Below the pieces are notes generated by a model, which saw only the letters and a program-made list of their open reading frames with translations, did no database searches and had not been told where the DNA came from. This document shows positions 22,257-45,121 of a stretch of DNA of 64,000 nt, piece by piece. The position numbers and the translations under genes were made by a program. The stretch lies in NCBI RefSeq assembly GCF_000003815.2, contig NC_049983.1, positions 19,806,338 to 19,870,337 on the forward strand. Reading direction: 5' to 3'. Origin of the DNA: Branchiostoma floridae (taxonomy: Eukaryota > Chordata > Leptocardii > Amphioxiformes > Branchiostomatidae). Positions within the stretch are counted from its first letter, which is position 1, and every line of letters starts with the position of its first letter.

Positions 22257-25200
22257 TCACACCAGAATGGATATGATCTCAAACCCATAATGGTTGTAGT
22301 AAACCTCCACCTTGCCGTCCCTCTCGAGAGTACGCAGGACCTGTGAGAAGGGGGTCCGTCGCCTCCTTCCATGCCACTGTGTGTACTCTTCCTCGTAGAT
22401 CATCTTCATATCTATCTTCTCCATACTCAGACTGATGTTCTGGTCCTCAACGTACTGCAAGAAGTCCCGGCCTTCAGCAACCAATGGATCTTCATAGCTA
22501 TTGTCCTGAGGGTCCATAAAATATATACATGTTGGCATATCTTATTACCTGAATGTCCAACGTACATGGATGATGTATGTTACTGAGCTTTTGTGGAATG
22601 GTAGAAAAACAACAACTTAGAATCATGATTAAGCACAACTGACAAGCATGACATGTTCCGGGACATTCTTACCTGAGAATAAGCTTCTGTGCCTGATGGA
22701 CCTTGTTGCTGTAAAAGATGAAAGAGTGTTTAAAAAAGTTGTTTAAAATACAGCTGTCCACCACATACTTCTCATGACACTGCTACATAGGTAATTTTGT
22801 CTAACTCATCAATACAAAGTAATTACAATGTGATTTACCTTAAAGACTGGATAGCAAGATCCGAGATGACCGTCCAGCTCCTCAGTGACGATGGTGACCA
22901 TCTTGCCCCCCAGGACAACCTCCGTCCTCTCTCCGCCCCCAGCGAGGAAGCAGACGGTGTACAGGGCCAGCTCGAACTCTGGGCTCGTGCCAACAAAGAA
23001 GCTGCTTACAGCATTCAATAGCTCGTGTCCTCTGTCCTTTAGGTAGCCGACATCCCAGCTGAAGTCGATCGTGAGGATCATGCGGTCATCAAAATCACAG
23101 GACTGGAATGGGCAACATATGGATTATAGATATATTACTTTTTCAGCATAGCATCAGCTTACAATAATTTTAGTTGGGATAGAGAAGGAGTCTACAGATG
23201 GCACAACTTACCTGCAAGCAGTTGTAGACTTGGACTAGCCCCTGGTACTCATCTATGTAGAGACGGAGCCAGTTTTGCAAACCCATCATGTGCTGACAGC
23301 GAGTCTCGCCCACAAAGACATGTTCAAATGCTGTGGAGAGCCTGTTGAGTTTAGCATGGACAAAAGGTTATGTTTTTACCAATGGTACATCAGTTCTTAT
23401 TAGGTGTGGGTTCCAGTATGATGTACTGGTTCAAAACCAGTTTTGCTTGTTGCACTGGTCCTAAAAAACTGGACCTGAAACAAATCAATGAACCATTGGA
23501 CCATTGTTTTGAGTATCGCCCTTTCAAAAGTTTTCACAATTAGGTCCAGGTTCAGCTCCAGACTGAGACCTGATCCTCTAAACCTGAACCATACCTGTAC
23601 CTGAATTTTCTGTACCAGTCCCCATCCTTAGTTTTTATCTATATTTGACAGCCCTTACAACAACATATGATTCCTTAAAGCGAACCAATAAACAGTGGCA
23701 CTAGCTTGGTGGACATGACTGGTCCTGCTGCATACATTATCACAAAGTAATGTCAAACAGACGCACTTTAACCTTACCCCTGCAAAAAGCACACTTACCT
23801 TTGAACCCCGTCGCTGTGAGTCCTGGTGTAGGGTGTGAACCATATCTTGTATAACAAGTCCTTGAACCCCTTTCTAGTTTCAGACACATATCCTGTACAT
23901 AATGGGATACATTTCAAGTTCTATTTGAAAAAAGATTGCAGGAAAGTTTAGCTGGTAAGTAATATAATTGAATTTGAAATTTACATTTGACAGGGTAACA
24001 CTGTAACAGCCACAAAAGTCTCAGTTGCGTTGGATCAAAAGACTAAGGCCCACTTCGAACAACACTTATATAAACTCGTATACAGAACATCCATGTTTAT
24101 CTTTAACATTTGGTAAGAGTATATGTGCCCTTTTGGCTGTTGGATGACCGAATCGAGGCGTGGATGCGGCAAGGAGAATGCCACGCTGACTGTCGCACGG
24201 ATAGAGCGTAACAGCGCGTAGCGCTTGGTGTCGTGTACGTATGGCTGACACAGGAAAAACAAATAGTTTAGTATCTTCCCAGACAAGACAACCTCAATGC
24301 TGTGAGATACAGGACACCATTCTTCATGCAGTCGCAATGTTGTACCTCGTCAGCGTGTGCAATTATGCAAGTGTTAGACTGCAACGCCCATCAATACAGA
24401 GCAAGGACCATTGCAGACTGTCAGCGTGGATGGGCGGTGTAATCTTACAGAATGTCATTTGACCCCATATTGAAGGGGTAAGACATTAAGACTGAATGGA
24501 GAATGGTGTCCCTGTATCTCACAGCATTGAGGTTGTCTTGTCTGGGAAGAAGCTGAACCTTGTTTTTCCTGTGGCAGCCATACATTCACCACACCAAGCG
24601 CTACGCGCTGTTATGCTCTATCCGTGCAGCGTGGCATTCTCCTTGCCGCATCCGCACCTCGATTCGGTCATCCAACAGCCAAAAGGGCACATATACTCTA
24701 GACTTATCAAATGTTAAAGATAAACATGGATGTTCTGTATACCAAAGATTACGTGAAAAAAAGATTGATTGAATCCTTTACACCCACACCCATAGCAGCA
24801 GGATGATACAGTGTTGACCACAAAAATTGAAATTTGGGCACTTTTTTTCGTGACCCATTGGTGTAAGTAGCCCTGATGCTCGTTTCATGAATTTATAATC
24901 ATAAGGAGTTTGATACCATATGAAAGAAAATCACACACGCTTTCTATTGATATATCACACATTAAAATTGATGCAGAAACAACGGAAATATGATCATTCA
25001 AAGTTGATATTCCAAACTTTTTGTGCCGAGTTTAGTTGTGCGACTGTTATTGTCTATCGTTGTGGACATGCGTTCAGAGTATTGCGGGACACCCGCGGTG
25101 CAGGATTCCATTGCGGTGCGTACGTGACCCACAGTGACCTCTTGCTTGCAAATTAAAATGGCGGGAGAATTCTTCATTTTCGTCGTGCAGCAGATTACTA

Positions 25201-28200
25201 TTTTTTGCTTGAAAACAAACATAGTCCACAACAAAGAATGACACAGACACGGGAAAATCTGGAATTAAACCGGGTCTTCGTGGCCGCCAGATTATCATCA
25301 AGGAATTGGGGCATGCGAAGGATGTAGCCACTGGTGGCGGGGCATTACACTGGAACAGGCAGTTTCTGATGATAAAAATACGTTTCCATCACTGACTACA
25401 TGTATGTTTAACGAGAAAATGCCTTTTCAAACAGAAAAAAACATGCTGCAGGCATATGATCCACTTCCCTCACCGGCGACAGTCTCTCTTTAGACATGTG
25501 ACGAATAGTCGCCGGCCCCCCGCTGAAGGGTTACACAATAATTCCAATAAAAACCACAACTATTTTGATCCTCTTTAGACAGCCTAAAAATATCGTCGCC
25601 CGCGACGTTGTCGACAACAACAGTCGCAAGACTATAGGGCTGTGTACCTAAATACCCGTACCTGTACCGTACCTAAAAAACTGCTTAGGTACAGGTCTGG
25701 AGCTAAACATCTGTGTACCTGCACCTGTACCTAAACAGTCCAAATTACTATTAAACACTACTTTTTAAGACTGCTGGACAAGTAAATCCGAATCAAGAAT
25801 GACAATAGTGATAATCTTGCAGTTGAAACTTCAGAAAACTTGCAAAGAAATTGTTTTGAGATTCAAATATGTAATTGCCCATACAAAGAGGACAATTTAT
25901 GACAATAAAAGACAGTTACATGTAGCTACATGTTTAACTTGCATATACTTGGTTAAACTTTTTTAGGTACAGGTGCAGGTCCGGACCTGTACCTAAACCC
26001 GCGTACCTGTACCTGTACCTGTACCTGTACCTGAAAATTTGTTAAGGTACACAGCCCTACACGACTATATAAGTGTCTGTTTGAAGTGGCCCTAAACTCT
26101 CAACAAGCTGATGATCTTACCCTCCTTAGCCAGGAACCAAAGTGCTCTCTGCATCACCTCCGTATCCAGGCAACAGTTCAGGAATGCCCGGGCATCGTTC
26201 TCTTCCTGCTGTGTCGTGTACCTAGGCAGGCCTGTGCCGTAGTTGTTCACCAAGTTCTGGAGGGCTAAACACATTTAATTAATACATACATTAGTTGATG
26301 AAGGTTAGACATCCAGGTAAAAAGATATGCCAAAAAAGCAGCTACTCAAGCAACAGTGAGTGGATATGATTTGGGAAATGGTGAGATCACTGAGATGTTA
26401 GCATCCACTATCTTTTGTCAGTGACACAGTTTTGGGTGAAATACATACACTACTTAATACATCCTTCTACATTAAACAGCAAGGCTGTAGTAGACGTGTG
26501 TTCAATATGCCGATATAGCCTGATTATTGTCCTGATATGAGGCACACCAAAACAAAGTGTGCTAGCATCCAAGGGGGGATTCATAGAATTGAAGACGAAT
26601 AAAATTCAACACTGGAACGAGAAGTTCAAGCAATTTCAAACAATATTGTCAAGGCAATATCCTCATTTTTAAGAGACAAATGACTGAATCCTTACCTGAG
26701 ATAGCACTGTTCACTGTGCTGCACCACAGTCACAGATAATAACAGGCAGGGTTCTAGCTAGTGCATTTTAGCGTAGTGGGCCACTACGCTAAAATTTGTG
26801 ACCCCTACGCTAAAAAATAGTAAAATAAGGGCCACTACGCTAATTTTTAACTAGTGTAGTGGTGCTTTGCTGTCATTTGCTTGTTCAACAAATATTATGA
26901 CTTATCAATGTCTGAAAAATGAAATATGATGATATGCCACTCAAAACTGACCCCCAAATCCTAACTTTTAACTCTATATCTTCAAATCTCTACCTGGATG
27001 GACCAAGACCCCCTTCCACACCAACCTCCTGATTAGTCGCTTCGCTACCATGCCATTCCCACTACGCTAAAATAAAATCCTAAAATGACAGGTGTATTTA
27101 AGACAGCAATAAGTTATTTTCATAAGCAGAAAATGATGGGCATAAGTGCGCAACAGCATTTGTGGTTAATTCTACATCTGTCACCTATTCAACGTTTATG
27201 TTCAGTTCACAGATGCTCTGGTCTCCAACCTGAACAATGTCAATAATTTCCATAACTTGAAAGTTTATCTGTATTGGTTCAAAAAAAGAACTTCCCCAAA
27301 TTTTCCACTGACCAACTTCAGTTTGTCATTCCTTGACACAGACTGGAGTTGATCAGTTGAAAATTTGTATGAGTCAATGTTTTTGTGTTTGGGGTTACAG
27401 ATCCAGAATAACAATATCAGGATTGTATTTTGGTGACCAAAGGATGCTAATGCTCACCTCTGTAAGTTGGGATGATTTCCAAGTTGTAACGAGCAACAAA
27501 GGGAAACAGCTTGTCACCCTATATCAAAAGTGGATAACACAAATGTAAGTAACAATGACACTTTCTCCACACTGACTCTAGCAATAGAAAAGATACTGAA
27601 CAACAAGTAACATGAATATTTGAATTCTTTGTTGGTAAAAGATTGTGTGATGCAAGTACATGACACTTACTAAGTATTCAAGTCAAAGAGTGTGCTTCAT
27701 TGAGCCTGAAACATGAAGACACAGTCAACCTAGATGAAAAATACATTTTTTTAATCATGGAAAGGCCATACGTACATAAAGATCTACTTCATAATCTTCC
27801 CCTCTCCACAGATGGTTCTGGTCAAGCATCCACAGGGTGGAACAGATGTCAGACTGCATTTTTATCTGTAAAGGGTAACATAACATTAAGACTTTAGTCG
27901 TACATTGTTTAGGGGGATGGTTTAGCCAAATGTTGGCATCATGTTGACATAACAGTTAGGGTGTTTGGCTCAGTACAAGTCCCGGTTTCAATCTACTTAC
28001 AAGCCACAAAAGATTTTACTCCTGGGAAAGGCACTTTACACAAATTTCCTCACCTCACTGAGTGGATCAAACAAATCTGTCTGGATATGCAGCTTGCACT
28101 TTTCATTGAAATGATGACTCTGAAGTACAAACCCAGTGTGTTATGCCTTGGTTGTACCCGACATGCAATACAAACAACTGAAAAGTGCTTGGTTCAAAGA

Positions 28201-29961
28201 TACATAACTTGTGCATGCCATGTGACTATCATTCATTGGTGGAGAAGTATGGTCCCATGACACAAAGATCATGTATTTCTTACTTTGTTTTTCACTTAAA
28301 ATCATCATATTTCACTACGATAAACCATCATTTTGGGGCCAAATGACTTGAAATTTAGCATAGGTGTAAAGAGTAAGAAATCATCTCAAGGTGTTTTTTT
28401 ACATCTTTCTACTCCACAAAACTGTTAATCTTTTAAGTTTTTGAGGAGTTCAATGGGAGAGACATCACTTTGTTTGAGTGCAGTAATATTGTTTTAACTG
28501 TAGTAATTTTGGGATGGAGAGGGAGTGAACTTTGCTGCACTGCCTTTCTAGTATTACCCGCTTCTGTCGGAATGTGTCTGGCCTTGCGGCAGCCCCATGG
28601 TCCTCGTGCTTTCCAACCTAAATACAGACAATATGGTACAAAAACATGATATCAATGAAAACACTGAACTTGATAGTGAGTGAAGACATATGGATGGTCA
28701 TATTTACATTAATTATCTGCAAATTTGATGGTGTCATTATGAACAAATACTTTACAAGAGCTTAGAAAGCTGTATTATTAGGCATACACAAGGAAGCACA
28801 TCATAAGTAAATCAGTCGCAACACAGAGATCGAGTGAAGAGTAAATTGTAATGGTGGTGGCACGGTGGCCTTGTGGTTAGGGTTGTTGACTCAGAACCTG
28901 GAGGTTCTCAATTTGAATCCCTGACAGGTCCCAATGTTGTGGCAGTTGTGCCCATGAGAAATGCACTTTAGTTTACAATAATTTCCTCACGCAACTCTGG
29001 GATAAAATGAGTACCGAGTTTGAGGTAGGGACGTCCTTTGTCACAAACGAAGATCATGTGTTTGACGACTACTACATGTAGTATCCTCGACACAAACCTG
29101 GTGTGTTACGCTATGAGGTGGTTAACCGGGTATAGAATACAAGCAATACAATTAAACAAGGCAGAAGAATTACTAGTAAGTGGGCCTTAGAATAGATTCT
29201 GTCCTGTTTCATCCTGTGTAGATTACATGGTATCAGTATACTATCACTGCTGAAATATTGACTTTTCAGAAGAAAGCTGAACCCTACCGTCTCTTGAGCC
29301 CTCTCAGTGCTGGTTGGTACTTTAGGAGTTGTTGCAGAAGCATCAGTCTGACTCTGAGTGTGCCTCACTGGGCCTCCCTTCACTGTGGGGTCAACACGGT
29401 GGGAGTTGTCACAATCCTGGCCGTTTTTCACAGTGTCGCTCGTCTTCTTGTCACTTGTCTGGCCGGGGACCACCTTGGGGGCCTTTGTTTTGTTCTTTGC
29501 TTCCCGGTAGCGGTCGACGATGTTCCGCAGCGTGGTGTTCTTGAGTAGTCCGTCCGCTCCAAGTGCAGGAAGCAGGAACTTGTGTCTGCAGCTGGGGCAC
29601 CGAACATGCTGCATGGAGAAAATTGTTTGTTTGCATTAGACAACAGCAAGTACACAGCTTATCCAGACCAAATTGATACCAGAACAAAAACCAATGTGCA
29701 TACTGATGTCATCTATAGTCTAGAATTGACTCACAGTGGCCATATCGACAGATATTGCTTGTTGCCATGTGTACTGTAGTAGTAGGATTACAGGTATTCT
29801 GCAATCTTCCATGTTTACGTTACCTTCTGTGCCGCACCTATCCCAACAAAGAATACGCCGGCGCACCTTTTACACAGACTGTGTGCACAGGGCAGGAGTA
29901 CCGGCTGTTCGTACAGGTCCAGGCAGACCGGACAGGTCAGTTCTTCAGCAAGGGACTCCAT
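22257..29961 (-). CDS. gene A: RING / decayed B-box / EndoU fusion
   Basis: Exons in transcription order: 29961-29824, 29608-29288, 28617-28558, 27865-27776, 27518-27458, 26264-26121, 23892-23799, 23341-23212, 23102-22839, 22708-22673, 22505-22257; 528 residues. The N-terminus is a complete RING of MID1 type ([21 protein letters not shown], then CPSCRHKF). B-box 1 has lost most zinc ligands in frame. A 20-residue exon ([14 protein letters not shown]) is half of a B-box 2. The rest is a whole EndoU domain: [44 protein letters not shown]. EndoU proteins cleave RNA at uridines using two histidines and a lysine. Here the second histidine (usual GFHNW) is glutamine (GLQNW), so activity is doubtful. 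An 83-residue C-terminal module ends the protein. Exon sizes and phases match gene C, which supports the model. Ligase activity is inferred from the RING. Confidence 0.82.
23401..23630. mobile_element. hAT-like MITE, TAGGGCTGGGTACC family, degraded copy
   Basis: Left end TAGGTGTGGGTTCCAG and right end CTGTACCAGTCCCCATCCTTA are decayed versions of the family ends. Flanks GTTCTTAT (23393-23400) and GTTTTTAT (23631-23638) form an 8 bp duplication with one mismatch. It lies in an intron of gene A. A sequence resembling its middle occurs near 38720-38810 in gene C. Confidence 0.6.
24078..24742. mobile_element. foldback element in an intron of gene A
   Basis: Two inverted arms of about 250 bp (24078-24326 and 24493-24742) are similar over their full length, with scattered substitutions and small indels. 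The spacer is about 165 bp. Both arms begin GTATACAGAACATCC when read outward-in. No transposase is encoded. No clear target duplication is seen at the ends. The two arms contain matching open stretches in mirrored frames, a by-product of the palindrome. Confidence 0.7.
25635..26059. mobile_element. hAT-like MITE, TAGGGCTGGGTACC family, copy 3
   Basis: Ends are TAGGGCTGTGTACC and GGTACACAGCCCTA. Flanks CAAGACTA and CACGACTA give an 8 bp duplication with one mismatch. The interior is rich in CCTGTACCTGTACC repeats. It lies about 60 bases into the intron after the 144 bp exon of gene A. Confidence 0.75.
26765..27070. repeat. dispersed repeat with TTTTAGCGTAGTGG palindrome
   Basis: The left part contains ATTTTAGCGTAGTGG followed by its inverse, and the right part ends with CCCACTACGCTAAAAT. 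The motif CACTACGCTAA recurs several times in either orientation. It looks like a degraded small DNA element with terminal inverted repeats; its exact ends and a target duplication are not clear. Confidence 0.5.
27961..28110 (+). repeat. probable SINE fragment
   Basis: It contains a degenerate tRNA-like head (GGCTCAGTACAAG, CCCGGTTTCAATC) followed by GGGAAAGGCACTTTACAC and ATTTCCTCAC, a body related to that of the element at 28855. It lies in an intron of gene A upstream of the 90 bp exon. Confidence 0.4.
28855..29118 (+). repeat. tRNA-derived SINE
   Basis: The head resembles a tRNA gene: A-box-like TGGCCTTGTGG at 28866-28876 and B-box-like GGTTCTCAATTTGAATCC at 28903-28920. The body has AATGCACTTTAG and ATTTCCTCACGC, a pattern common in tRNA-derived SINEs of animals. 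It does not look like a functional tRNA because the acceptor stem does not close. It lies between the first exons of gene A, on the opposite strand. Confidence 0.55.
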
Positions 29962-30900
29962 CTCGCCTTACTCAGATTCCTATAATCCAAGCCCTGATTT
30001 GTCAAAGAATTTGTGAGATTAAATGGTCACGAATGACATCATTTACATAACACAACAGTGACAACACTTCTCCAAACTACAACTGTGAACAGCCATGCAT
30101 GGCTTTGCCCAGCCTTTGTTTTGCAACAACAGCAATTATTCAAAACAGATGTCTCACACTTGAGAAGAGGTGTTATCAGATAAGAGTTACATCTTATCCC
30201 GCATGGAGACAGATTCATTTCTGTAATCAACAGTTTTCCTTTACACAATATTAAACCCTTGTTTCCTAGAGATTCCAACAACCCCATGTAACCCTAACGG
30301 TCATGAACAGCCCACCTTGCTTGGTGGAGTGAGTGCCCTATAATTTTTTCTGCAAACCCAGAACTTATAACTTGTGGGTTCGAACTTGAAAGGCTTAAAA
30401 AGACTTCTCTGTCAGGCGACGACATTCTCACCATATTCTGTTTACCCTTTATCTTCCACATTTACTCTGTTATGAAGTCTCCTTTATTAGAGTAAAACTG
30501 AAAATGAACTCGTTTGCTTGCAGCTTGGGATTTTTTCGGCGCGCCCCAACCCACGCGGGCGAAGAGAAACATCCGCCATTTTTGTTTTCCTCAGAAAATG
30601 TTGCCGAAGGCATCCAAATTTCAAGGTTACGACCTAGTCTTCTGCTTGGCAACAATACCAACTTATTTCCAAACGAATATTGATATAATTCAAGATTTGA
30701 ATGGACCACGTGAGGAGTATCTTGACATAAACACAAGCAGAGAGCACCGAGAGATAACCACCATGTCGGGACATCATCTTCTAGGTAACGTTACAAGACC
30801 CTGTAAACTACAGGAGACATCTTGAGACCAACTCTAGCGGTGAAGTGGACAAGGACATAAACAGCGACGACGACAACAACAACAAAATCATCATTCTTAC

Positions 30901-30965
30901 CTGCTTGGCGCATGAAAAACTGAGCAATGTGGTGCTCGGCTTGGGGCGATGCACTTGGGGCAACT
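30901..30965 (-). other. probable 5' non-coding exon of gene A
   Basis: A strong donor (GCAG before GTAAG) at 30901 follows sequence similar to that above the donor at 46196 in gene C: both contain AAAACTGAGC, GATTTGGG-like and TGCACTTGG motifs on the plus strand in the same order. It lies about 0.9 kb upstream of the ATG exon. The 5' limit is not defined. Confidence 0.45.
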
Positions 30966-31067
30966 CAGGACGTTTGACACCTTGGCAGTTCCGCTCTTAC
31001 TCTTAGCCAATCAGAGGACATCATGGATGCCAGGCCGTCTCCAGGGAATACATGCGGCTCCAGTGCT

Positions 31068-31170
31068 CTCCAAGCAGATGTTGGTGGGAAGACTGGGACC
31101 AATGGGTCCACCATATGAAAGATCATGGGGCAATAAGAAGGTCATAATCTTCCAAACCAACATTTGTTCG
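31068..31170. mobile_element. small hairpin element, CTCCAAGCAGATGTT family
   Basis: Begins CTCTCCAAGCAGATGTTGG and ends with CCAACATTTGTTCGGGGAG, an imperfect inverse. It is similar in size and termini to the element at 9421 and to the one at 57029. Confidence 0.5.
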
Positions 31171-32961: not shown

Positions 32962-35900
32962 TTACTCTAACCCTAAGGCAAGACGATCGTTATACCTATC
33001 ACGTCGACGCCCGCGCATTTGACCTCCAGCATTTGGCGCATTCGTAACAGACATGTCGTCGTCCGCCACGGCACGTGGGTATTCTGTCGCGTAACGGTTA
33101 AGTTTAGATTGGAGACCACTTTCTGTGGGAGACATGAAAACACAAAGTAAGAATCATGTGCTGGTATTTAACGAACACACCGCGGTCGTCTTTGAATGAT
33201 TTTTAGTACTCCAGACAATATCGCCATCCTTATGAAAGATGCATAAGTCTTTATTACACTATTGATCATTATTAAACCAACTTACCACCGCGTGTTGTTG
33301 TGAATTTCACAGGTTTGGAATTAGCTATTCCTGAAGCGTTGACTGAAACGACGACAACCGAGTAGGTCGTGTTCTCCTCCAGATCATGGAGTTTGTTGGA
33401 GGCGGTGGTGAAGTAAGCTGTCTGTTGCCAATCTTTAACACCCTGTTTTGCTTTTCCATACCAAATTTTGTATTTGTCAACTGGCGTGGTCCCCCCTGCA
33501 GCCCAGTACACGGTGATGTGGTCACGACCAGCCGTGCACTTGTCGGTTAGGATCCTTGGCGGTTCTGGGGCTAAACAATGGATTAAACTTCATTCATTAG
33601 TGACAATCACAACAACTGTTATTCATAACATTTCCAGAGAAACACTTCAGCTCTCCTGATCTAGTACCCAATCACCAATCAAGCATATAATCCTGCTCTT
33701 GTTTATAAAAAAAATCATACCTTGCAGAAAGTCCAGTGACGACACCTTCTGTTCCAGGTCGGAGACCTCAAGAGTGTTGTGGATGAACTTGTCGGTGGTG
33801 TTCAACTCACGTTCCTCCAAAAATTTGAAGGCAGCGATTCTGCCAATGAAAGAACACTCTTGTTGACGTAGTTCACATCAGACGTAAAATATGAAAGAAG
33901 CATTGATTATCGCAAAAGATAGAATATTTGGTCTCAGATTATTCTTACCTGTCTTCCACTGATTTGGATACCTAAAGAAAAGAAAAGAAAGGGGACTTAA
34001 TAAACATCGAATACATCTTATTTTATACATAACATTCGCATCGCATCACAATCAATCGAAATGGTTTCATTGTACGAATATGTGTTCTCTGTACATGTGT
34101 TACAAACAATGCTAACATTACGACAACTACATCATATTACGTTATCCTACGCAGTGTACTTGGGCTGACTTCCCAATATTGGAGGCGTTCTGATTCAAGA
34201 TGAGCTTGCAAGAGCATCGATATGGTACCTGTAGAAAGGTGATGGGATCCTCTTCATTCAGCAGTGCTTCAGCCTCTGTAATAGCAGCTGAGATGCCGGT
34301 CCCGGTGTTTGCCCACTGGTCCAGCTGCTGGCCCAATGTCATCAGCTTGTCATTCTTCTCCTCGTCAACCTTTGCCTGCAGCACATCTTTCCTCTTCATG
34401 ATGGCGGCAATCAGGGTTTGGGCAAACGCTTCCACTCGCTCTTTAATGTCAGAACAATTTTTCTGCATCGAAGGAAGTACAAAATACAATGTATACATTT
34501 TGATAGAAGAAATAATCTCAAATACTTAAGAATGATATTTGAAACGTCAATAATCCAAAGTATAACAGTTTCGCTTTACATACGCGTCAATTTTAACTCA
34601 TTGAGCAATGCAAATCTATATTTATACCAGCCGAAATATAAGGACAGCTTTACCTCAGCATCTGTCATCATCTGTTGGATCTTATCCACGAAACACTCTA
34701 CTTCTGCGTTTTGCTGAATCAGTCCCGCGACTCCTCCGCCAATGGATTCCTTCAAAATATCAACAAAGAAGTATGATATCAATTAAGTGACTGACATCCT
34801 GTGCCATACTGTTAACCCCACTCCACCCCCACCACATACACACACACACACACCTCACCGCCGAGTCAACCTTGCAATTGTGTCCACACCAATACCTTTA
34901 AAATGATTCTGCTTAAGTCTTATATAATTACCTTCTTCTGTTTGAATGTGTCTGACACCGCGGCGACCTCATGGTCCTTGTGTTTTCCAACCAGTTTGCA
35001 CAGAGAGCAGACAAGACACTCGTCTGTCTCACAGTACATGTTCACCTGTGAACGGAAGGTAACAAGGAATGAGAAAGTATTGAAGTACTGTCATTCTTTA
35101 TGCATGTCCAGAACAGAGGATACAAAACAAGAAGTTTCGGTGGAGTACCGAAGAAAGCAAGATGTTAGAAGATCTTAGAAGTCTTCCGAAGATCTTCCCA
35201 CGTGCCAAATCATCCATTCCTTAGTATGATATGCGCCTACGGACACACCAAAAACAATACCTCTCGTAAAACTCCCTTCCATGGGGGTAATGATAAGTAT
35301 CCGTCAAAAATCAAACCTACCTTTTCCTGTATGTGCTCTGTACACATCAGTACTTTGGGAGTTGCTGATGATGCTTCAATCAATGTGTGCCTGGCCAGCC
35401 CTGCCTTCATGGGATGGTATTTCGCTAAACATGCTTCACAATAGGAGGTGTCACAGACTAGGCAGGTTTTCACGGCATCGGCCGGTGGCTCACCGTCGCA
35501 CATCTCACACGGGACTGCCTTGGGGACCTTTGTGTTGTTCTTTGTTTCCCGGTAGCGGTCGACGATGTTCTGCAGCGTGGTGTTTTTGCGTAGCCCGACC
35601 ACTCCGAGTTCGGGAAGTTGGAACTCGTGTCTACAGGTTGGACATTCAACATGCTGCTCCTGTGCACACAAGTTATGACAAAAGTTATGTATCTGCTTTG
35701 ATAAGTTGGCTTGACGTCAGATCTTATCACCTTAGACTTACTTTGATGTTGATACAAATGACTGTGTTCATACTTCCAATATTTACGTTACCTTAGGCAC
35801 CACCCCTTGCCCAGGAGGTTGTGGATGGGGTTTCCTCAAGGCTTCAGCAAAAACGTCGCCGGCGCACCTCTTACACAGACTGTGTGCACAGGGCAGGAGT

Positions 35901-35962
35901 ACAGGCTGTTCGTATAGGTCCAGGCACACCGGACAGGTCAGTTCTTCAACAAGGGAATCCAT
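32962..35962 (-). CDS. gene B: MID1-like TRIM with truncated SPRY
   Basis: Exons in transcription order: 35962-35792, 35659-35321, 35045-34932, 34749-34654, 34462-34229, 33971-33949, 33839-33721, 33570-33286, 33122-32962; 513 residues. Order: RING ([29 protein letters not shown]), B-box 1 (CEMCD...CLVC...CEAC...H), B-box 2 ([25 protein letters not shown]), coiled coil, a COS-like helical stretch, one FN3 domain ([18 protein letters not shown]), then the first part of a SPRY (DDDMSVT) that soon meets a stop. This is the class I TRIM layout of MID1/MID2, which are microtubule-associated E3 ligases. The RING and both B-boxes keep their zinc ligands. A 23 bp microexon is shared with gene D at the same place. 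The second exon could start six bases later (35653). Neighbours A and C share its N-terminal exons. Confidence 0.85.
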
Positions 35963-38176
35963 CTCGCTTTACTGACTCCTAGGAGGGAAGAAGGACAGTG
36001 CTAAAACATGCAAAACGTCTAACACAGAGCATTGGAAACTTATTACGATACTCCAACATGTCCCTGGACAACGAAGTTCATGAGGAAGCCCTCTTTTCCC
36101 CTCCCGACCACATTCCACTTGGTCTGTGTGCAGAACTGCCACTATTGACAAAGCCCCCTTTGCCTTGGGAAGACTAACATTGTCACATGGCATTTTTCAT
36201 CGGAGTGGTCCGTAGTGCGTTTTTCTTTGTGGCCCGAACAACTACGTTTATAAGGAACTTGGACTTGCCCTAACTATGACGTAACACATCCCACCAAATT
36301 GGATAATTCGTAAAGATATTACCGTTTCTAATGCCCGGTAAGTGTACCGTACTGCAGGTGAGTGGTGTGGGGTGGGGTGTCGCCGGGTATGAAAGCCCGC
36401 CGTACAGGTGCACCTGATCAGGTTTCAGGACAAACATTCCCGGTGACGTGTAAGGTCATGTCAGGGTGTTGTGTAGTTTCGGTGGCGTCGGTACGAGTTT
36501 CAATAATCATGAATAATTGTAAAAACTTCGCGTTATCTTGTGTGACTCCGCAGTCCACTATGCACACTCTAGCACTATGAATGAAAAGTCTAGTATTCAA
36601 TCTAAGGGAATGTTTTTGTGTAAATGCTGTATTTTAGGGTATTGCTGAACATTAAAGATGGTCTGTAACGTCTTCATTCTTGATCACGGTAGTGAACAAA
36701 AATGAACATGAAATGAAACATTTGTGGCGTTGTGTTTCTGTAAATCACATCGTAAGGGATGTGCCGTTTATGTATGTAGTACGCTTAACTTGCCTTACTC
36801 CTCGTTTACTGACAAAGCCTCCGTACTTCTGTAACATACCAGCTGTATTCAACCGTTTCGCATCAATGATAACGGAACCAAGAAAAGCTTACTTCAAACC
36901 TGCGATTGTCAAGGTTGATGTTCTCCCAAAAGACGTAGCTAGTCTTTTTTAAGTCCTCCACATAACAGCACTTGATCTGAAGGAGGGTCTGAGCAATACC
37001 ACGTACACGTCGGAGTCACTTCGCTGCGGTAATGGTGAAACCGGCAAGCGTCCTTCCGCGTCTGTCCTCCTTGCCTTTCAGGGAGGTATCAGGCTGACCT
37101 GGGAACGAGCTCATATAGCTTTGCAGGTGCAGGGTAATGCCTTTTGGCATGGTCTTATTTCATTTTCGCGAACTATGTATATTGTGTCTGTTGATTTATG
37201 TTGTCTACTCTATCCAGTGATGCACCTATAATCCAAGCGTTAATAATCGCTTGAGTACGGCACCACTTTGTATTTAATTGATAAAAACGCCAAAAGACTA
37301 AAAGTAATTCTATATCATAACGAAGAAAAGGAAGTCAGATCCTGCACGTTTATACTGACTTGAAGTTGTGCACCTTCATCCCGCTGCTGCTCTGAGAACT
37401 AGTGGACTGCGCGCTGCTTGCTTTCGCGTTGTTTACCAACACTGGTAATGGGAAAAAGTGATGGCTGAGAATACGAAAAATTGTCACGATTATGTTGAAA
37501 ATTAGTACGTCAATCTGGATATTTCAAAATTCAGAATATTTACCGCAGTTTTAGCGCTTAATACAATACATTGTAGTGTGTTCTGGGAGAATACATGAAA
37601 AGGTAAGACAAGATGTCACATATATCGGCATATATCTAGTCCTCTTACCTACTGATCAACAATGCAAGATATTCAAGTCCAATCTCAATACTCATTTTGA
37701 TAGTACTGTTTATTCCGACATGAAAGGACCTATGACATATGGTTCATTTGTTTTGCTCCAAAGGAAACAAACTATTCTCTTCGTTTTCTCTTTCATCCTT
37801 TATTTCAAGTCAAAATGATGTGAATGCAAGAAATAAAGTAACGTTACATGAATTTAACTTTTTATAGATATAATGACAAACGTCACAGAAGAACTTTCAC
37901 GTCATAAAATGAGACCTACTGTCACCTACAATAAAGAAAATAACTGGAATGTTATCAATTTTCAAACCTAGTAAGCCACAGCAACAGTGGAAGTGAACAT
38001 GACTTTGCATAACAATAGAGCAAAAAATAAACATGATTCTGTATACAGTGAAAGTGAATGTACACTGTGATGCCTTTTTTAAAAATAAAGTTGCCCCCCA
38101 CCGGACCAAAAAAGCATATGAAAGTTTAAAAAAAAAACAAGACACAGATTGATCTGTCTGGGCTTTGTAATAAAGT
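35963..38176. other. spacer between genes B and C
   Basis: Upstream of gene B and downstream of gene C, both on the minus strand. The promoter of gene B should be here; I could not place a non-coding first exon like those of A, C and D. Nothing else is recognisable. Confidence 0.5.
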
Positions 38177-41100
38177 TTATTCCAGGATGGTGATGATGTC
38201 TACCCCATGATGGTTCCTGGAAACCTCCACCTTGCCATCCCTCTTGAGAGTACGCAGGACCTGTGAGAAGGGCGTGCCTGACCTTCTCCCACACGACTCT
38301 GTGTACTCTTCCTCGTAGATCATCTTCAGCTTTCTCTTCCCCATCTCTGGTCCGATGTTCTCGTCCTCAAGGTATTGTAAGAAGTCTAAGCCTTCAGCGA
38401 ACAGTGGATCTTCATCGCTATCGTCCTGAGGGTCCATAAATACATGAGGTAAACTTTCGAAAAAATAATTTGGACTGCATGCCTAAAAAGGTCCCTTGAC
38501 GGCTTTTTTGTGAACTGCAGGGGGCAATTTCACTTCAAACTTTGTTCTTATCCAGGTAAGATGATTTCCTCAAACATACATGCAAACATATACTTTTGTT
38601 TTGACAAGTTAGCTGTGATCCACTGATTAGAATATGGTATATAAAAGTATGTTTAACAGAGAGACGGGACTTAAAAATGCCAGTGGGAATAGATACTCCC
38701 TGACAGATTCCTCTCTAGCAATGGACCAAATTGTTTTGATTATTGCCCTTTCATAATTTTCCAAAGAAATCTATGTCCATACTTGAACATACTTGACCTG
38801 TACCTGAATTTGATGAAAAATTTATGCCTACAGATATCATTCTACATAAAATTAAACCTTGTTTATTTGGTGAAGATATGTGTTTGTGGAAGTTATTCCA
38901 TGATCTATTTGTGGAGATATTCGTGCCTGTTTAATTTGTATGGAGGAGAAGAAGAAGAAACTAAGCAAAAACAATATGTTTCACTACAGTAAAGGTAAAC
39001 ATAACAAAAGCAATTTAGCTGGGGGACATTGACAATTCTGGAAACCTAGGAATGTCTTACCTCAGTTTCAGATTCCGTGTCTGATTGATCTTGCTCCTGT
39101 GAAAGATGAGTATTGATATAAATACAGTTCTACTTTCATATACTTGCCATGACACGTGACACAGCTATATGGGTAAGTTTGTCTAATTTAGAAGTAATCA
39201 CTTTCAAATTACCATTAGTTGCCTTTTGTTAAAGCCAATGTAACAATCTATCTGAAATACATGTAAGTCAGCTCCACATTACCTGGAAGTGGGTGTATTT
39301 TGTTCAAACATTTTCAATTTTTTTTATCAATCTGAGATAACTAACTGAGAACTATAGACTTTCTGAATATTTTCTACTGCATCATACTACATGTTAGAAA
39401 AATTTCTAATATTTTCCACCATATTAGAAACATTTCTAATGTCTTAAGATCTATATTACAATGTACTTGAATTGGTTTCTAAACTGTTCCAACATACATA
39501 GACTCACTGTTTTGTTCTAACATATTAGAACATCTTGTATATGGGTCAGTGGGCTGGGAAGAAAGCAATTCATCCCAGCAAAGTACTGAGAATTATTTCT
39601 AGATGCCATCCATAGATGGCTTACAACGAAACAGTCATGGTGTCTGGCCGTGAAATCTAAAAATATAAGAAAGCAGACAATAGAGACAGGTTATGGGGGC
39701 AAATAATAGTTAACCCATTTTGGGAAATGTGGCAAAATGAGAATCACAGAGATGTTGGATAATTGTTCTGAATAATGAGTTTTTTGTGCAGTTACTTTCA
39801 AAATGTGCAGTTTTGTTGGCAGAATTTGATTATATCAACACACAAATTGTATTCAATTTGGGAATGTTACAATATGTAACTGAAACATAATGATTGAGAT
39901 ATAAAACAAGATGGTACTGTTCTTTTACAAGTGTCCATGGAGCAGAAAGTGGGAAGATCACAGAAACTCCAACCTTAATTACTGATCTGCAAGATCAGAT
40001 AGCAAGATCTGCCTGATTATCTTTAAACTTTGTAAGTTCTTACCTCAAAATCAGATTCCGTGTCAGACTCCTGTTTGATCCTGTTCCAGTGTCCTGTTTG
40101 ATCTTGTCCCTGTGAAAGATAAAAAGATTGTACATTTAAATACAGTTGTCCACTACAATGTGATACCACTATATGGGTAACTTTGCCTAACTAATCAGAC
40201 ACTGTATGTGTAAATTCACATGTACCTGCATGATTGGATAGCAAGATCCGATATGACCGTTCAGTTTGTAAGTGGCGATAGTGATGTTCTGGCCTCCAAG
40301 GACGACCTCCGTCTTTTCTCCGCCCCCAGCGAGGAAGCAGACGGTGTACAGGGCCAGCTCGAACTCTGGGCTCGTGCCAACAAAGAAGCTGTCCTTGGTC
40401 TGTCTTAATTCGTCTCTCCATTCAAAGTCAATGTTGAGGATCACACGGTCATCACAATCATAGCGCTGAAATGGGTAATGTTTGAATTATGCATATTTGC
40501 AGAACTGAGATACATGTGAAACATGCTCATTGCTTCCTGATGTATGAAGGCTCATAATACTTTCAGTGCATCCAGATGTTCATAGCTATTTGAATACACT
40601 GTCTGTTAATAGAGTGGCAGGAAGTGAGCTGGAAGATTATGTTGCTGCAAAGGTCAGAGCTGCAGAAGTAATAGGAAGTATCAGACATGACAAGTCTTGG
40701 GGTCATTGGAAGAGGCTTATTAAGAACTGATTGCTCTCAAGATATCTAACAGATGTTTTTTTCATACACTTGTAACATTGAAATGAATCTATGAGCTATG
40801 TTAACTATCCTCCATCCAAATATAACATCTTGAAGTTATGTAGTTAAATACACCACTCACTCTCACTCACACAGAAGATAATGTTAGCTCAAAATGACAT
40901 TCAAATATAACGTCTTGAAGTTATGTAGTTTAAAATACACCACTCACTCTCACTCACACACAACATAATGTTAGCTCAAAATGACATTATAAGCTGATAT
41001 ACACCTTGTTTACCATATTAAGGTTCATAGCAAATGGGTGCTCACATTATTTGCAACTAAATGCTGGACAGGCACTCTTTCACCCCAAATTTCAGACAAA

Positions 41101-44100
41101 CTGAAATGCATTTAATTTAGTATTTTCATATAGCCAGGCGCCGCGGACCAATCAGAAGGCCCCGTTCCACGTTGGTTATGACGCCGTAACACGTAGATTC
41201 ANNNNNNNNNNNNNNNNNNNNNNNNNNNNNNNNNNNNNNNNNNNNNNNNNNNNNNNNNNNNNNNNNNNNNNNNNNNNNNNNNNNNNNNNNNNNNNNNNNN
41301 NCCGGGGCATTAACCCTTTAATCTAGCTCTCTGTAGGTACAATGCTTACAGAATGTCACACAACTAACACAGTAGCTGTTGAGTTGGATGTTCCCCAGGC
41401 ACTCCTTGTCATAGAAACTGAGCCAGTTGTGGAAGCCCATCATGTGCTGACAGTGTGTCTCTCCCACAAAGGTGTGCTCAAATGCTGTGGAGGGCCTGTT
41501 GAATTTAGCATGGACACAAAGGTTACATTCTTCTTAGCAATAATACATCAGTTTGTTTGACAACCTGTACAATAACATGCAGCCTTGATGTGCAAAACAA
41601 AACAAAACAAAACAAGCAAACAGAATAAAACAAAACAAATAACATCTCTAACTTGGTAGCCACCATTGGTCCTACTGCCTGGTAGTGCATTGAAGGTCTC
41701 TCATTGCCACTTTTGTCAACCCTTGAGTCAGTAAAAACTAAATACACGTACCTCTTAACCCCGTCGCTGTGAGTCCTGGTGTAGGGTGTGAACCACATCT
41801 TGTATAACATGTCCTTGAACCCATTTCTAGTTTCAGGCACACATCCTGTAATACAGAAATGATGGGGCATAGTTCAAGTTCCATTTGAAAAAAAGATAGA
41901 TGAACAGGATAAAATTCAACCTTAAAGATCTAACAAGGGTAATAAAATTCGTAAAGTGTCTGTTGTATTGGATTTAAAGTCTAAAATCTTCTGAAGCTGA
42001 TTGCCTTACCCTTCTTCCACAGGAAGTTATGTGCCTCCTGCATCACCTCCGTATCAAGACAACGGTTAAGGAATGCCCGAGCATTGTTCTCCTCCTTTGC
42101 TGTCACATACTCGGGTTGGTCTTCGTCGTAGTTGTCCAGGAAGTTCAGAAAGGCTATACAAAGTGAAATAACATACATTGATTAATTTATCCTTCTATAT
42201 TAAAGAGCAAGGCTGTAGAAGTGAAGAAATATGCAAACATCGCCCACATGCCAGTAGCCAGGGGGGGTTCGGAAGAACCCCCACACCCGCTCAAAGGTCC
42301 GCTTTTTCACGCTGGAAGGTCCACTTTTTCATGTCCAAGATTTTTTTTCAAACTTTTTTGCATTTTTCACTGATAGACATTTCATTCAATCTTAGTGAGT
42401 CTATCAGCAATATTTGCCCCAGAAAGTGCAGGAAATGGCTTTTCAGTAGGTCTAGATTTCAAAATTTCCCCGGACCTTCATTGGCATCTTTAGAATTGTG
42501 GTAAACCTATTGAAATTTTTGAAAAAGACAAACTTCAATAGCCTGGGTAACGTTACCATCCAATTTCTATCGGGGCTCCTTATACTCGGACGGTACCCAG
42601 GCTAAAACTTCAAGACTGACACATGAAGAATCAAGACTTTGTTCTAATTGTCAAATTCTAACAATACTGCCAATGCACGGAATCTTTTCTTGTGCAACAC
42701 TCAATGAGCAGCACAACAGTTATCCTGATAATAACATGAGTATTAAGACAACAGTGTAGTAAATAGATGCTGACGTGACAGCATAAACAACATGTTTTCA
42801 TGTTGACATACAACTAATATTAAGATTGTATCATGGTGACTTTTTTATGTCACCACAAGACATTTCCTCATGCACACCTCTGTAAGTTGGGATTTGTTCC
42901 AAGTTGTCTCGACTCACAAAGGGGAAGAGTTTCTCGCCCTATACAAAAGTGGACAAAAGAAAAATGTAAGTACAACTTATTTCAATGCTGACTTTGTGAC
43001 AACAGCAATAAAAAGGACACTGCAAAATGCCACAAGACATTAGTAACATGAATGTATAGAGTAGTAAATTCAAGTCTCTGTTGGTAATGACACTTAAATT
43101 TGTCGAAATGGACATTTTAGTTAAGATCTTATTGAAGTCAAGAGGCTGTTTAGTTGTACCCGAAACATTAAGACAATTGACAAGATATTAACAATGAGGA
43201 AAAGTCATACGTACATATAGGTCAAGGTCATAGTCTACCCCTATCTTCAGATGGTTATGGTCAAGGGTCCACAAGGTGGAATAGATGTCAGGCTGCTTTT
43301 TTGTCTGTAAAGGATAAAGAAATGAAACAGTAAGAATAATCATATTAGTTTTGGGGGTTTGTTCACCAAAATGTCACACAGATTTGCCTGATAATGGCTG
43401 ACAATTGGTCGGTTCAAGGTAGCTTGACTTAATCATTTTGCAGTGAAGTTCAGTCACATTGTTATCTGTCAGTGGGAGTCTTTGTACATCTCTTTTTTTT
43501 AGAAATGCTACTAGTATCTTAAAATGTTCTTACTTGCTAATTTCTTTTTCAATTACCATATTTCATCCCATTTCATCATTTTGCAGCCAACTTATCACCC
43601 CTGATATTCGGTACAGTTGTTGAATAGGTAAATACCTCCAGGCACTTTTCTTCATTTCTTACTTCAGTTCAGTTCAGTTCAGTTCATCCATCAGGTGAGA
43701 CTATAAAGTTCCTCCAGACAACTCTGTTGTTCATGACAGACAGGCCTCATGCAGGCCTTTTATTGAGTTCTTTTGGAGGGCTCAATCAGAAAGATTCATT
43801 TTTCAGGGCAGAAATGTTGGAATATTCCATGTGCTGAAGTAACCAATGACATTTCAGATAACGTCCTTGAATTAACTTTGATAAAGTCCATTTTTGCATA
43901 TGGAGGGAGAGAAATATGCTGTATTCAATGTATTATTTTGCTTTTCTAGTATGACCTGCTTCTGTTGGAATGTGTCCGGCCCTGCTGCAGCCCCTTGGTC
44001 TTCGTTTTTTCCAACCTGAAAGGAAAATATGACACACACACACATCAAATCTGTTGAGGTGAGAAGACACTGTATCATGTTGATGGCCATATTTTCATTA

Positions 44101-45121
44101 ATTAATTGCAAATGTGATTGTGTAATCCTGATTACGTCTACTTGGAAAGCCATTGGATGCACATAATATTACTAGCTAAGTTATTCAGGTGCAACACTAT
44201 CACTGACACTGAGACAATGCCGAAAAATAATGGAGAAGACCCTAACTTCTACTTCCATCTTATTTTTGTCCTTTGTAAATTGCATGGTAGACTCATTAGT
44301 CGCTGTACCTGTACTAAATGTTGACTTTGCAGAGGAAGTCATACCTTCTCCATATCAGGTTGATGTTCAGAGCTTATCGGTGCTTTGGGAGTTGCTGCTG
44401 ATGCATCTGCCAGTGTATGCCTTGCTAGGCCTCCCTTCATTGGGTGGAAAGCCACCAAACACGTCTCACAGTAGGAGTTGTCACAGACCAGGCAGGTTTT
44501 CACTGCGTTGTTTGGTGGCTCTTTGTCGCACATCTGGCAGGGAACCGCTGTGTTATTCTTTGATTCCCGGTAGCGGTCGACGATGTTCTGCAGTGTGGTG
44601 TTTTTACGTAGTCCGTCCACTCTGAGGTCGGGAAGTGGGAACTCATATCTGCAGCTGGGGCACTGAATATGCTGTCGACACGGGGCATGGTTTATTTGCA
44701 TCAGGCAAAGAAAATCAGATTCAAAATTGAATGTGAAAGTGCAAAAATAAGAACAACATGGGTAAAAAAAATCCTAGATTACAAGACCATAAATGTAAAA
44801 ACAATGTAACAGGAATTGAAGCAGGAAATTCCATTACAGGCTAAACCTCTCTCCATGCACAGCCTTGGGGCTCAGAAAGCCTTGGGCCTACTGAGGTAAG
44901 CCCGCACTAGTCCACCTTTTCCGGAAACCTAGTTTCTATGTAAAACTTACCTTGGGGGCCTTCCATTCCTCAGCAGGTTGTTCAGAGGGTCTCTTCAAGG
45001 CTTCAGCAAAGAATGTGCTGGCGCATCTTTTACACAGGCTGTGTGCACAGGGCAGGAGTACCGGCTGTTCGTACAGGTCCAGACACACCGGACAGGTCAG
45101 TTCTTCAGCAAGGGACTCCAT
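38177..45121 (-). CDS. gene C: RING / B-box / EndoU fusion
   Basis: Exons in transcription order: 45121-44951, 44671-44345, 44015-43956, 43304-43215, 42938-42878, 42153-42010, 41845-41752, 41495-41369, 40465-40226, 40109-40044, 39096-39061, 38425-38177; 554 residues. RING is complete, B-box 1 is intact (CQMCD...CLVC...CETC...H), and B-box 2 is only a half exon with its histidines changed (KNEDQ). The EndoU domain is whole and keeps both histidine motifs ([17 protein letters not shown]) and [20 protein letters not shown]; a lysine sits just before SFF (TKDSFF), near the catalytic lysine of the family. Two acidic mini-exons (GQDQ..., EQDQ...) precede an 83-residue C-terminal module. RNA cleavage is plausible from the residues but untested. 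A 100-base gap lies in the intron between the EndoU exons at 41369 and 40465. The 41369 donor (GTTAGT) and the 43956 donor (GTCATA) are weak. Confidence 0.82.
40817..40987. repeat. tandem duplication, two copies of about 85 bp
   Basis: Copy 1 is about 40817-40901 and copy 2 about 40902-40987. Both begin CAAATATAAC and end AGCTCAAAATGACAT, with a few differences. It lies in an intron of gene C. Confidence 0.85.
41202..41301. other. assembly gap (100 N)
   Basis: A placeholder-sized gap in the intron between two EndoU exons of gene C. The exon just upstream (41369-41495) ends at a weak donor, so a misassembly near here could have affected the model. Confidence 0.95.
42255..42485. repeat. dispersed repeat beginning AGCCAGGGGGGGTTCGG
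   Basis: Contains a GGGGGTTC...GAACCCCC hairpin followed by repeated AAGGTCCxCTTTTTCA phrases. This looks like a piece of a dispersed non-coding repeat in an intron of gene C. I cannot assign a family. Confidence 0.4.
42539..42604. mobile_element. 66 bp inverted-repeat element
   Basis: Ends TAGCCTGGGTA and TACCCAGGCTA are inverted copies. A related GGTACCCAGGCTA is present near 6216, so the sequence is dispersed. No target duplication was established. Confidence 0.5.

What the first reader, a model, noticed from the sequence alone, without database searches (positions are those of the whole stretch)
22257..45121. RING/B-box proteins fused to a complete EndoU ribonuclease domain
Genes A and C each place a MID1-type RING and B-box in front of a whole EndoU domain (LWxLDxNHL, FEHx[29 protein letters not shown]) and an unrecognised C-terminal module. 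Two paralogs with the same exon sizes and phases argue against a chance gene-model join. I know of TRIM fusions to SPRY, FN3, NHL, bromo and other domains, but not to EndoU. A ubiquitin-ligase-like protein with a uridine-specific RNA-cleaving domain would be a natural RNA sensor or antiviral effector; that role is inference.
Basis: partly seen in the sequence, partly recalled or inferred. Interest (0 to 1): 0.88.

Follow-up and report, generated by a model that had tools for sequence, protein, structure and literature searches.

The report
Ubiquitin-ligase head fused to RNA-binding domains
In an amphioxus-like genome, two neighbouring genes appear to join the front of a ubiquitin-tagging (TRIM) protein to an RNA-cutting-type domain that has probably lost its cutting residues and to a piece of the antiviral protein MOV10, suggesting an RNA-reading ubiquitin ligase, although no transcript proves it yet.

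Summary
The fusion is there at sequence level and is richer than reported. Gene C (45121..38177, minus; 12 exons, 554 aa) reads RING - B-box1 - EndoU - MOV10_N; the "unrecognised" C-terminus is the N-terminal domain of the MOV10 helicase. Gene A (29961..22257; 528 aa) is its duplicate, but its B-box is gone. Neither EndoU is complete: the catalytic Lys (XendoU K224) is replaced in both and A lost the second His; the unfused relatives that could be read keep the Lys. The junction is legible: exon 3 of A and C is the 3' half of the B-box2 exon of the neighbouring ordinary TRIMs, spliced in phase 0 to an EndoU-MOV10_N gene whose unfused relative (C1:8.82 Mb) starts with its own Met. C has lost that Met. 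Both halves of C look constrained (dN/dS about 0.3); A looks relaxed. Best reading: a TRIM-derived E3 ligase whose substrate-reading half was replaced by RNA/RNP-binding modules, EndoU binding rather than cutting. No RNA data were available; one transcript, RNA binding and ligase activity are inference. Lancelets gain domain pairs quickly, so this is striking but not without precedent.

The parts
44951..45121 (-). Gene C exon 1: start codon and first part of RING (C3HC4)
44345..44671 (-). Gene C exon 2: end of RING, linker, B-box1 (best solved relative: Midline-1), degenerate start of B-box2
43956..44015 (-). Gene C exon 3: 60 nt, remnant (3' half) of the TRIM B-box2 exon; last TRIM-derived exon
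   Evidence: neighbours' exons read
43305..43955 (-). Gene C intron 3: the TRIM/EndoU fusion intron; similar to A intron 3 only at its ends; one AATAAA at 43764
43215..43304 (-). Gene C exon 4: first EndoU exon; no Met where the unfused relative starts
40226..42938 (-). Gene C exons 5-9: rest of EndoU (both catalytic His kept; catalytic Lys replaced by Arg or Gln, depending on alignment)
39061..40109 (-). Gene C exons 10-11: acidic linker
38177..38425 (-). Gene C exon 12: MOV10_N domain and stop codon
29824..29961 (-). Gene A exon 1: start codon and first part of RING
29288..29608 (-). Gene A exon 2: end of RING; B-box1 ligands lost
28558..28617 (-). Gene A exon 3: TRIM B-box2 exon remnant (60 nt)
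22839..27865 (-). Gene A exons 4-9: EndoU (start Met of the unfused relative kept; second catalytic His is Gln; catalytic Lys region replaced by an insertion)
22257..22708 (-). Gene A exons 10-11: linker and MOV10_N domain with stop codon
48045..52389 (-). Gene D: ordinary TRIM (RING, B-box1, B-box2, FN3, SPRY over cut-off; TRIM coiled coil below cut-off); the type of gene from which the RING/B-box half derives
33278..35962 (-). Gene B: sister TRIM of D by tblastn (RING, B-boxes, coiled-coil exons, FN3; no match to the SPRY exon of D)

Best explanation
The 5' end of a class-I-like TRIM gene (exons 1-3) became joined, by a phase-0 intron, to a complete EndoU-MOV10_N gene. The result, gene C, encodes RING - B-box1 - EndoU - MOV10_N, and gene A is its duplicate. 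I propose that it works as an RNA- or RNP-directed E3 ubiquitin ligase: the EndoU fold, having lost its catalytic Lys, binds (U-rich) RNA instead of cutting it, MOV10_N (a predicted winged helix) adds a second RNA or RNP contact, and the RING ubiquitinates proteins on the bound RNP. Shown by sequence: exon chain, domains, shared duplication, replaced catalytic residues, constraint on both halves of C. Inferred: a single transcript, RNA binding, ligase activity, any antiviral role. Gene A is probably relaxing: B-box lost, second His lost, dN/dS not separable from 1.
For: Gene models, splice sites and phases. Pfam on spliced products. Exon 3 aligns with the last 20 codons of the B-box2 exon of neighbours D and B (exons read). 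Unfused EndoU-MOV10_N relative at C1:8817564-8820215, intron positions alike, with a Met in its first coding exon, and no match to the RING/B-box of A or C at E<=0.05 in the 20 kb fetched around it. Gene C has no Met between residues 164 and 274; EndoU exons start at residue 187, so the first Met lies about a third of the way in. Away from its ends, intron 3 is not similar between A and C, nor to 7.6 kb upstream of the C1 gene, at E<=0.1, so no conserved alternative first exon is seen there. A-C dS is alike for exon 3 (0.38), EndoU (0.38) and MOV10_N (0.41), and close to B-D dS over exons 1-2 (0.41): fits one duplication of a TRIM + fusion pair. C-branch dN/dS 0.30 for RING/B-box (10 of 1000 bootstraps with dN>=dS) and 0.32 for EndoU-MOV10_N (2 of 1000). 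Lys at W+5 kept in 7 of 7 copies outside the window whose exon the pattern found (one has Cys for the Trp), not in A or C. Mutation of H162, H178 or K224 abolishes XendoU catalysis (PMC5282483, passages).
Against: No transcript evidence at all. A two-gene arrangement would also duplicate together, and dN/dS below 1 on both halves would also be seen with two separate functional genes. A 51-nt stretch in intron 2 (C 44126-44076, A 28737-28687) is 82% identical between A and C, matches neither B nor D, and is unexplained; it could mark a regulatory element or another first exon in front of exon 3. The last 70 nt of intron 3 are about 70% alike in A and C. AATAAA lies in intron 3 of C at 43764 (3 in 5280 nt of C introns, 0 in 6118 nt of A introns), and none is found within 500 nt after the stop of A. 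Gene A keeps the EndoU Met, so A could be two genes. In front of C exon 3 the unspliced frame is open for 51 codons with Mets, though A has an in-frame stop right there. Exon 2 could also splice straight to exon 4. A-C dS of exon 2 (0.59) and exon 1 (0.30) and B-D dS of exon 3 (0.20) depart from the common value. Arg, or a Lys two residues on, might stand in for the catalytic Lys. MOV10 residues 1-100 alone neither bound a viral nucleoprotein nor inhibited its RNP (PMC7746268, passages), and residues 99-400 mattered most against HSV-1 (PMC8880913, passages), so MOV10_N alone may not carry MOV10's antiviral activity.
Confidence: 0.53

Rival explanations
1. Two separate genes: a truncated TRIM (RING/B-box only) followed by an EndoU-MOV10_N gene with its own promoter, duplicated together; the joined model is a tandem-gene artefact.
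For: Gene A retains the Met of the unfused relative; AATAAA at 43764 in intron 3 of C and a conserved, unexplained 51-nt stretch in intron 2; an unfused EndoU-MOV10_N gene exists elsewhere; the region is a tandem array of TRIM-like genes.
Against: C has lost the EndoU start Met and has none from residue 165 to 273; intron 3 is similar between A and C only at its ends; exon 3 keeps an AG acceptor and a GT donor in both copies and is TRIM-derived; phases fit across the junction.
Confidence: 0.22
2. A catalytically active fusion: a RING-coupled U-specific RNase, with Arg or the shifted Lys doing the work of K224.
For: Both His, the FEHxFVGE motif and GSCYP are kept in C; an Arg aligns with K224 in the solved-structure alignment and a Lys lies a few residues on.
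Against: K224 mutation abolishes XendoU activity; the copies outside the window that could be read keep the Lys; the duplicate A has lost Lys and one His yet keeps an open frame.
Confidence: 0.17
3. Both fused copies are decaying by-products of local duplication without function.
For: A-branch dN/dS 0.85 (EndoU-MOV10_N; 261 of 1000 bootstraps with dN>=dS) and 0.53 (RING/B-box; 74 of 1000); B-box and catalytic residues lost in A.
Against: Frames and splice sites intact in both; C-branch dN/dS about 0.3 in both halves.
Confidence: 0.08

Closest known systems
Class I TRIM proteins (MID1-like: RING, B-box1, B-box2, coiled coil, FN3, SPRY); genes B and D of this window
   Same: RING and B-box1, layout of exons 1-3, genomic neighbourhood; the B-box matches Midline-1 best among solved structures
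   Different: B-box2 broken; no FN3 or SPRY in the Pfam scan and no relative of D's coiled-coil exons in A or C; C-terminal half replaced by EndoU-MOV10_N
Eukaryotic EndoU ribonucleases (XendoU, ENDOU, DendoU)
   Same: Domain match E 2.7e-64 in C; E 2.9e-44 to the structure 2c1w
   Different: Catalytic Lys replaced in both, second His replaced in A; N-terminal RING and C-terminal MOV10_N
MOV10 helicase
   Same: N-terminal domain PF21632, over cut-off in C; MOV10-type genes of the same genome lie on the same chromosome, three beta-barrel matches about 130-175 kb from the EndoU cluster
   Different: No MOV-10 beta-barrel match in the window and no helicase family in the Pfam scan of A or C
Roquin (RING protein with ROQ winged-helix RNA-binding domain)
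   Same: Analogy only: RING plus RNA-binding winged helix in one chain; ROQ chains head the fold matches of the MOV10_N model (TM about 0.61, E 0.02). That Roquin is a RING E3 is recalled
   Different: Weak fold match (0 matches at E<=0.001; other winged helices score alike); no homology in arrangement
Fish TRIMs with replaced C-terminal domains (e.g. ftr52, RanBD/cyclophilin)
   Same: TRIM N-terminus with a newly acquired C-terminal domain (PMC3137616, passages)
   Different: Other domains; not EndoU or MOV10

Membership tests
TRIM (RBCC) | RING finger | tested here: met
   RING_UBOX 36.7 bits in C and 35.7 in A, cut-off 25.2
TRIM (RBCC) | At least one B-box, gene C | tested here: met
   ANCHR-like B-box 31.9 bits, cut-off 27; the classical zf-B_box model stays below its cut-off (14.5 against 24.1)
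TRIM (RBCC) | At least one B-box, gene A | tested here: not met
   no B-box family at E<=1
TRIM (RBCC) | Coiled coil following the B-box | tested here: not met
   no TRIM_CC match in A or C, and tblastn of gene D finds its coiled-coil exons in B and D only; no coiled-coil predictor was run
TRIM (RBCC) | E3 ubiquitin ligase activity | not testable with these tools
   needs biochemistry
EndoU ribonuclease | XendoU domain | tested here: met
   217.3 bits in C, 184.1 in A, cut-off 32.3
EndoU ribonuclease | Catalytic H162 | tested here: met
   (FEHxFVGE in both)
EndoU ribonuclease | Catalytic H178, gene C | tested here: met
   (FHNW)
EndoU ribonuclease | Catalytic H178, gene A | tested here: not met
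   (LQNW)
EndoU ribonuclease | Catalytic K224 | tested here: not met
   C: Arg, Gln; A: insertion without Lys at the place
EndoU ribonuclease | U-specific, Mn2+-dependent cleavage | not testable with these tools
   needs biochemistry
MOV10 | MOV10_N domain | tested here: met
   C 34.8 bits over cut-off 27.4; A 23.4, below it, but 68% identical to C
MOV10 | Helicase core and beta-barrel | tested here: not met
   none of 5 beta-barrel places lies in the window; no helicase family in A or C

The most novel reading that the evidence does not exclude
A new class of RNA-directed ubiquitin ligase: a TRIM that traded its coiled coil and SPRY for a dead RNase fold used as an RNA sensor plus the MOV10 winged helix, in a lineage where EndoU and MOV10_N had already fused, duplicated as a TRIM/fusion gene pair and possibly serving RNA-virus or transposon defence.
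Probability: 0.3. Interest if true: 0.75.

Novelty: new variant of a known kind. Interest (0 to 1): 0.52.

Why it matters
If transcribed as modelled, this joins three families linked to RNA and immunity (TRIM, EndoU, MOV10) in one chain, with a readable record of how it arose (TRIM exon 3 cut short, EndoU start codon lost) and a pseudo-RNase that makes a testable prediction: binding without cutting. It also offers a natural contrast set in one genome: EndoU genes without the fusion, an EndoU-MOV10_N gene without the RING, a constrained fused copy and a relaxed fused copy.

Tried and rejected
Chance gene-model join: judged unlikely for C, open for A. Assembly error at the junction: rejected, no N run there. 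RING/B-box in front of other EndoU genes: 200 kb around the other EndoU places were fetched (11,631 of these bases are N); tblastn of the A and C RING/B-box at E<=0.05 hit only the window's four genes. In the genome-wide RING/B-box search (152 matches, not all listed; 150 of 380 candidates scored, so a lower bound) the listed places near an EndoU locus are those four genes; the next nearest is about 450 kb off (C1:9.27 Mb). Further EndoU-MOV10_N genes: only C1:8.82 Mb found (lower bounds). Solved relatives of MOV10_N by sequence: none convincing (best E 0.023). MOV10_N in phage records: no match (uninformative). The intron-2 island was compared with B, D and the C1 upstream region: no match at E<=0.1. 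Literature (open-licence library only): 'amphioxus'+'TRIM'+'EndoU' 0 papers; 'EndoU'+'B-box' 0; 'MOV10'+'EndoU' 3, not about such a fusion by title and start of abstract; 'EndoU'+'RING finger'+'fusion' 19, 18 listed, none about it by title, of which passages of PMC3482391 and PMC3710099 were seen and name no EndoU fusion in Branchiostoma. Searches were listings used to pick papers. No other Branchiostoma genome could be searched.
Full report
Setting. The window is G000:C5:19806338-19870337 in a 513-Mb genome of 431 contigs. Four minus-strand genes with very similar RING exons stand in tandem: D (52389-48045), C (45121-38177), B (35962 to about 33278) and A (29961-22257). D is an ordinary TRIM: RING, two B-boxes, FN3 and SPRY over cut-off, TRIM coiled coil below its cut-off (16 against 30 bits). 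B matches D by tblastn up to FN3, not in the SPRY exon.

Gene models. Seven of the 11 shared exons have identical lengths; C has an additional 66-nt exon; phases agree. DNA similarity between the two loci lies mostly in islands over the exons, with a few intronic and upstream stretches as well.

Domains. In C: RING, B-box1 (ANCHR-like model), EndoU and MOV-10_N pass their Pfam cut-offs. In A: RING and EndoU pass; MOV-10_N scores 23.4 bits against 27.4; no B-box is found. RING zinc ligands are intact in both by eye. So the 'unrecognised C-terminal module' is the MOV10 N-terminal domain. The family search finds MOV-10_N at five places of the genome: two MOV10-type genes (C5:21.58 and 23.30 Mb, exons confirmed), C, A (just below cut-off) and C1:8.82 Mb. 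A protein search adds weaker relatives at C5:23.28 and 23.31 Mb, in the stretch where MOV-10 beta-barrel matches also lie (in its controls that model also gives one match below cut-off in Bacillus subtilis). The helicase core of these genes was not searched. An AlphaFold2 model of the MOV10_N exon from two sequences (mean pLDDT 85; the five models 85, 83, 81, 54, 54) has the order helix-strand-helix-helix-strand-strand, a winged-helix order. Its best fold matches are ROQ domains of Roquin, TM about 0.61, E 0.02, with none at E<=0.001; this is a lead only.

Anatomy of the fusion. Exon 3 of A and C ([20 protein letters not shown] and [20 protein letters not shown]) aligns with the last 20 codons of the B-box2 exon of D and B ([40 protein letters not shown]). 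The acceptor has moved into the exon. The EndoU-MOV10_N half has a relative without RING at C1:8817564-8820215 (344 aa), with like intron positions and a Met in the first EndoU exon; that this Met is its start is inferred. At the same place A keeps Met and C has Lys; C has no Met from 165 to 273. No match to the A or C RING/B-box lies in the 20 kb fetched around the C1 gene. Away from its ends, intron 3 is not similar between A and C or to the C1 upstream region at E<=0.1; its last 70 nt are about 70% alike in A and C. A 51-nt stretch of intron 2 is 82% identical in A and C and matches neither B nor D; I cannot explain it. I take the whole as good but indirect evidence that C is one gene.

History and selection. 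A-C dS is 0.38 (exon 3), 0.38 (EndoU), 0.41 (MOV10_N), 0.30 (exon 1) and 0.59 (exon 2); B-D dS is 0.41 over exons 1-2 and 0.20 for exon 3. This fits one duplication of a TRIM + fusion pair only roughly: exons 1 and 2 of A-C and exon 3 of B-D are off. With C1 or D as outgroup, the C branch has dN/dS 0.32 (EndoU-MOV10_N; dN>=dS in 2 of 1000 bootstraps) and 0.30 (RING/B-box; 10 of 1000); the A branch 0.85 (261 of 1000) and 0.53 (74 of 1000). These are simple counting estimates on 342 and 145 codons.

Active site. Point mutation of XendoU H162, H178 or K224 abolished catalysis; in an alignment of over 700 homologs they are invariant, but that set had been filtered for them (PMC5282483, passages). 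C keeps both His; its residue at K224 is Arg or Gln, depending on the alignment. A has Gln for the second His and an insertion at the Lys. The 7 copies outside the window whose exon the pattern found keep Lys at that place (5 at C5:23.4 Mb, one at C2:1.95 Mb, and C1). The pattern missed C5:10.5 Mb and C2:11.7 Mb; tblastn alignments show the Lys in the two C5:10.5 Mb copies, and the C2:11.7 Mb exon was not seen.

Mechanism. What remains of the TRIM is the RING and B-box1; the parts by which TRIMs dimerise and choose substrates (from established knowledge of the family) have been replaced by EndoU and MOV10_N, so recognition most likely goes through RNA or RNP. MOV10's N-terminal region restricts a bunyavirus without the helicase, but residues 1-100 alone neither bound nor inhibited (PMC7746268, passages); against HSV-1 residues 99-400 mattered most (PMC8880913, passages). 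So an antiviral role is only a suggestion.

Novelty. Two searches combining the terms found no paper and a third found three on other matters, in a library of open-licence papers only. TRIMs with new C-terminal domains are known in fish (PMC3137616, passages), and lancelets were estimated to gain over 10 domain pairs per million years (PMC4284660, passages). Hence: new variant of a known kind.

Noticed in passing
window 24078-24742 (intron 6 of gene A): A long inverted repeat (five pairs of arms of 40-73 nt, 80-98% complementary, 118 nt between the innermost arms), like a fold-back element.
   Followed up: partly
window 44126-44076 and 28737-28687 (intron 2 of C and A): A 51-nt stretch 82% identical between the two fused genes, absent from TRIM genes B and D; function unknown.
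   Followed up: partly
window 59065-60516 (+): A 483-codon open frame with a P-loop (GASGSGKSS) that looks like a STAND/NACHT-type ATPase; another open frame lies at 58505-59140. Named by eye; no family search done.
   Followed up: no
G000:C5:23.27-23.52 Mb: Three MOV-10 beta-barrel matches (23.27-23.31 Mb) lie about 130-175 kb from a cluster of EndoU genes (23.44-23.52 Mb): a possible birthplace of the EndoU-MOV10_N fusion.
   Followed up: partly
window 29961-29844, 45121-45004, and from 35962 and 52389: The first 34 RING residues are nearly identical in all four genes while exon 2 has diverged (A-C DNA identity 93% over 118 nt of exon 1 against 69% in exon 2), suggesting gene conversion or strong constraint.
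   Followed up: no
window 35962-33278 (gene B): No match to gene D's SPRY exon was found in or after gene B, so B may be a truncated TRIM.
   Followed up: partly
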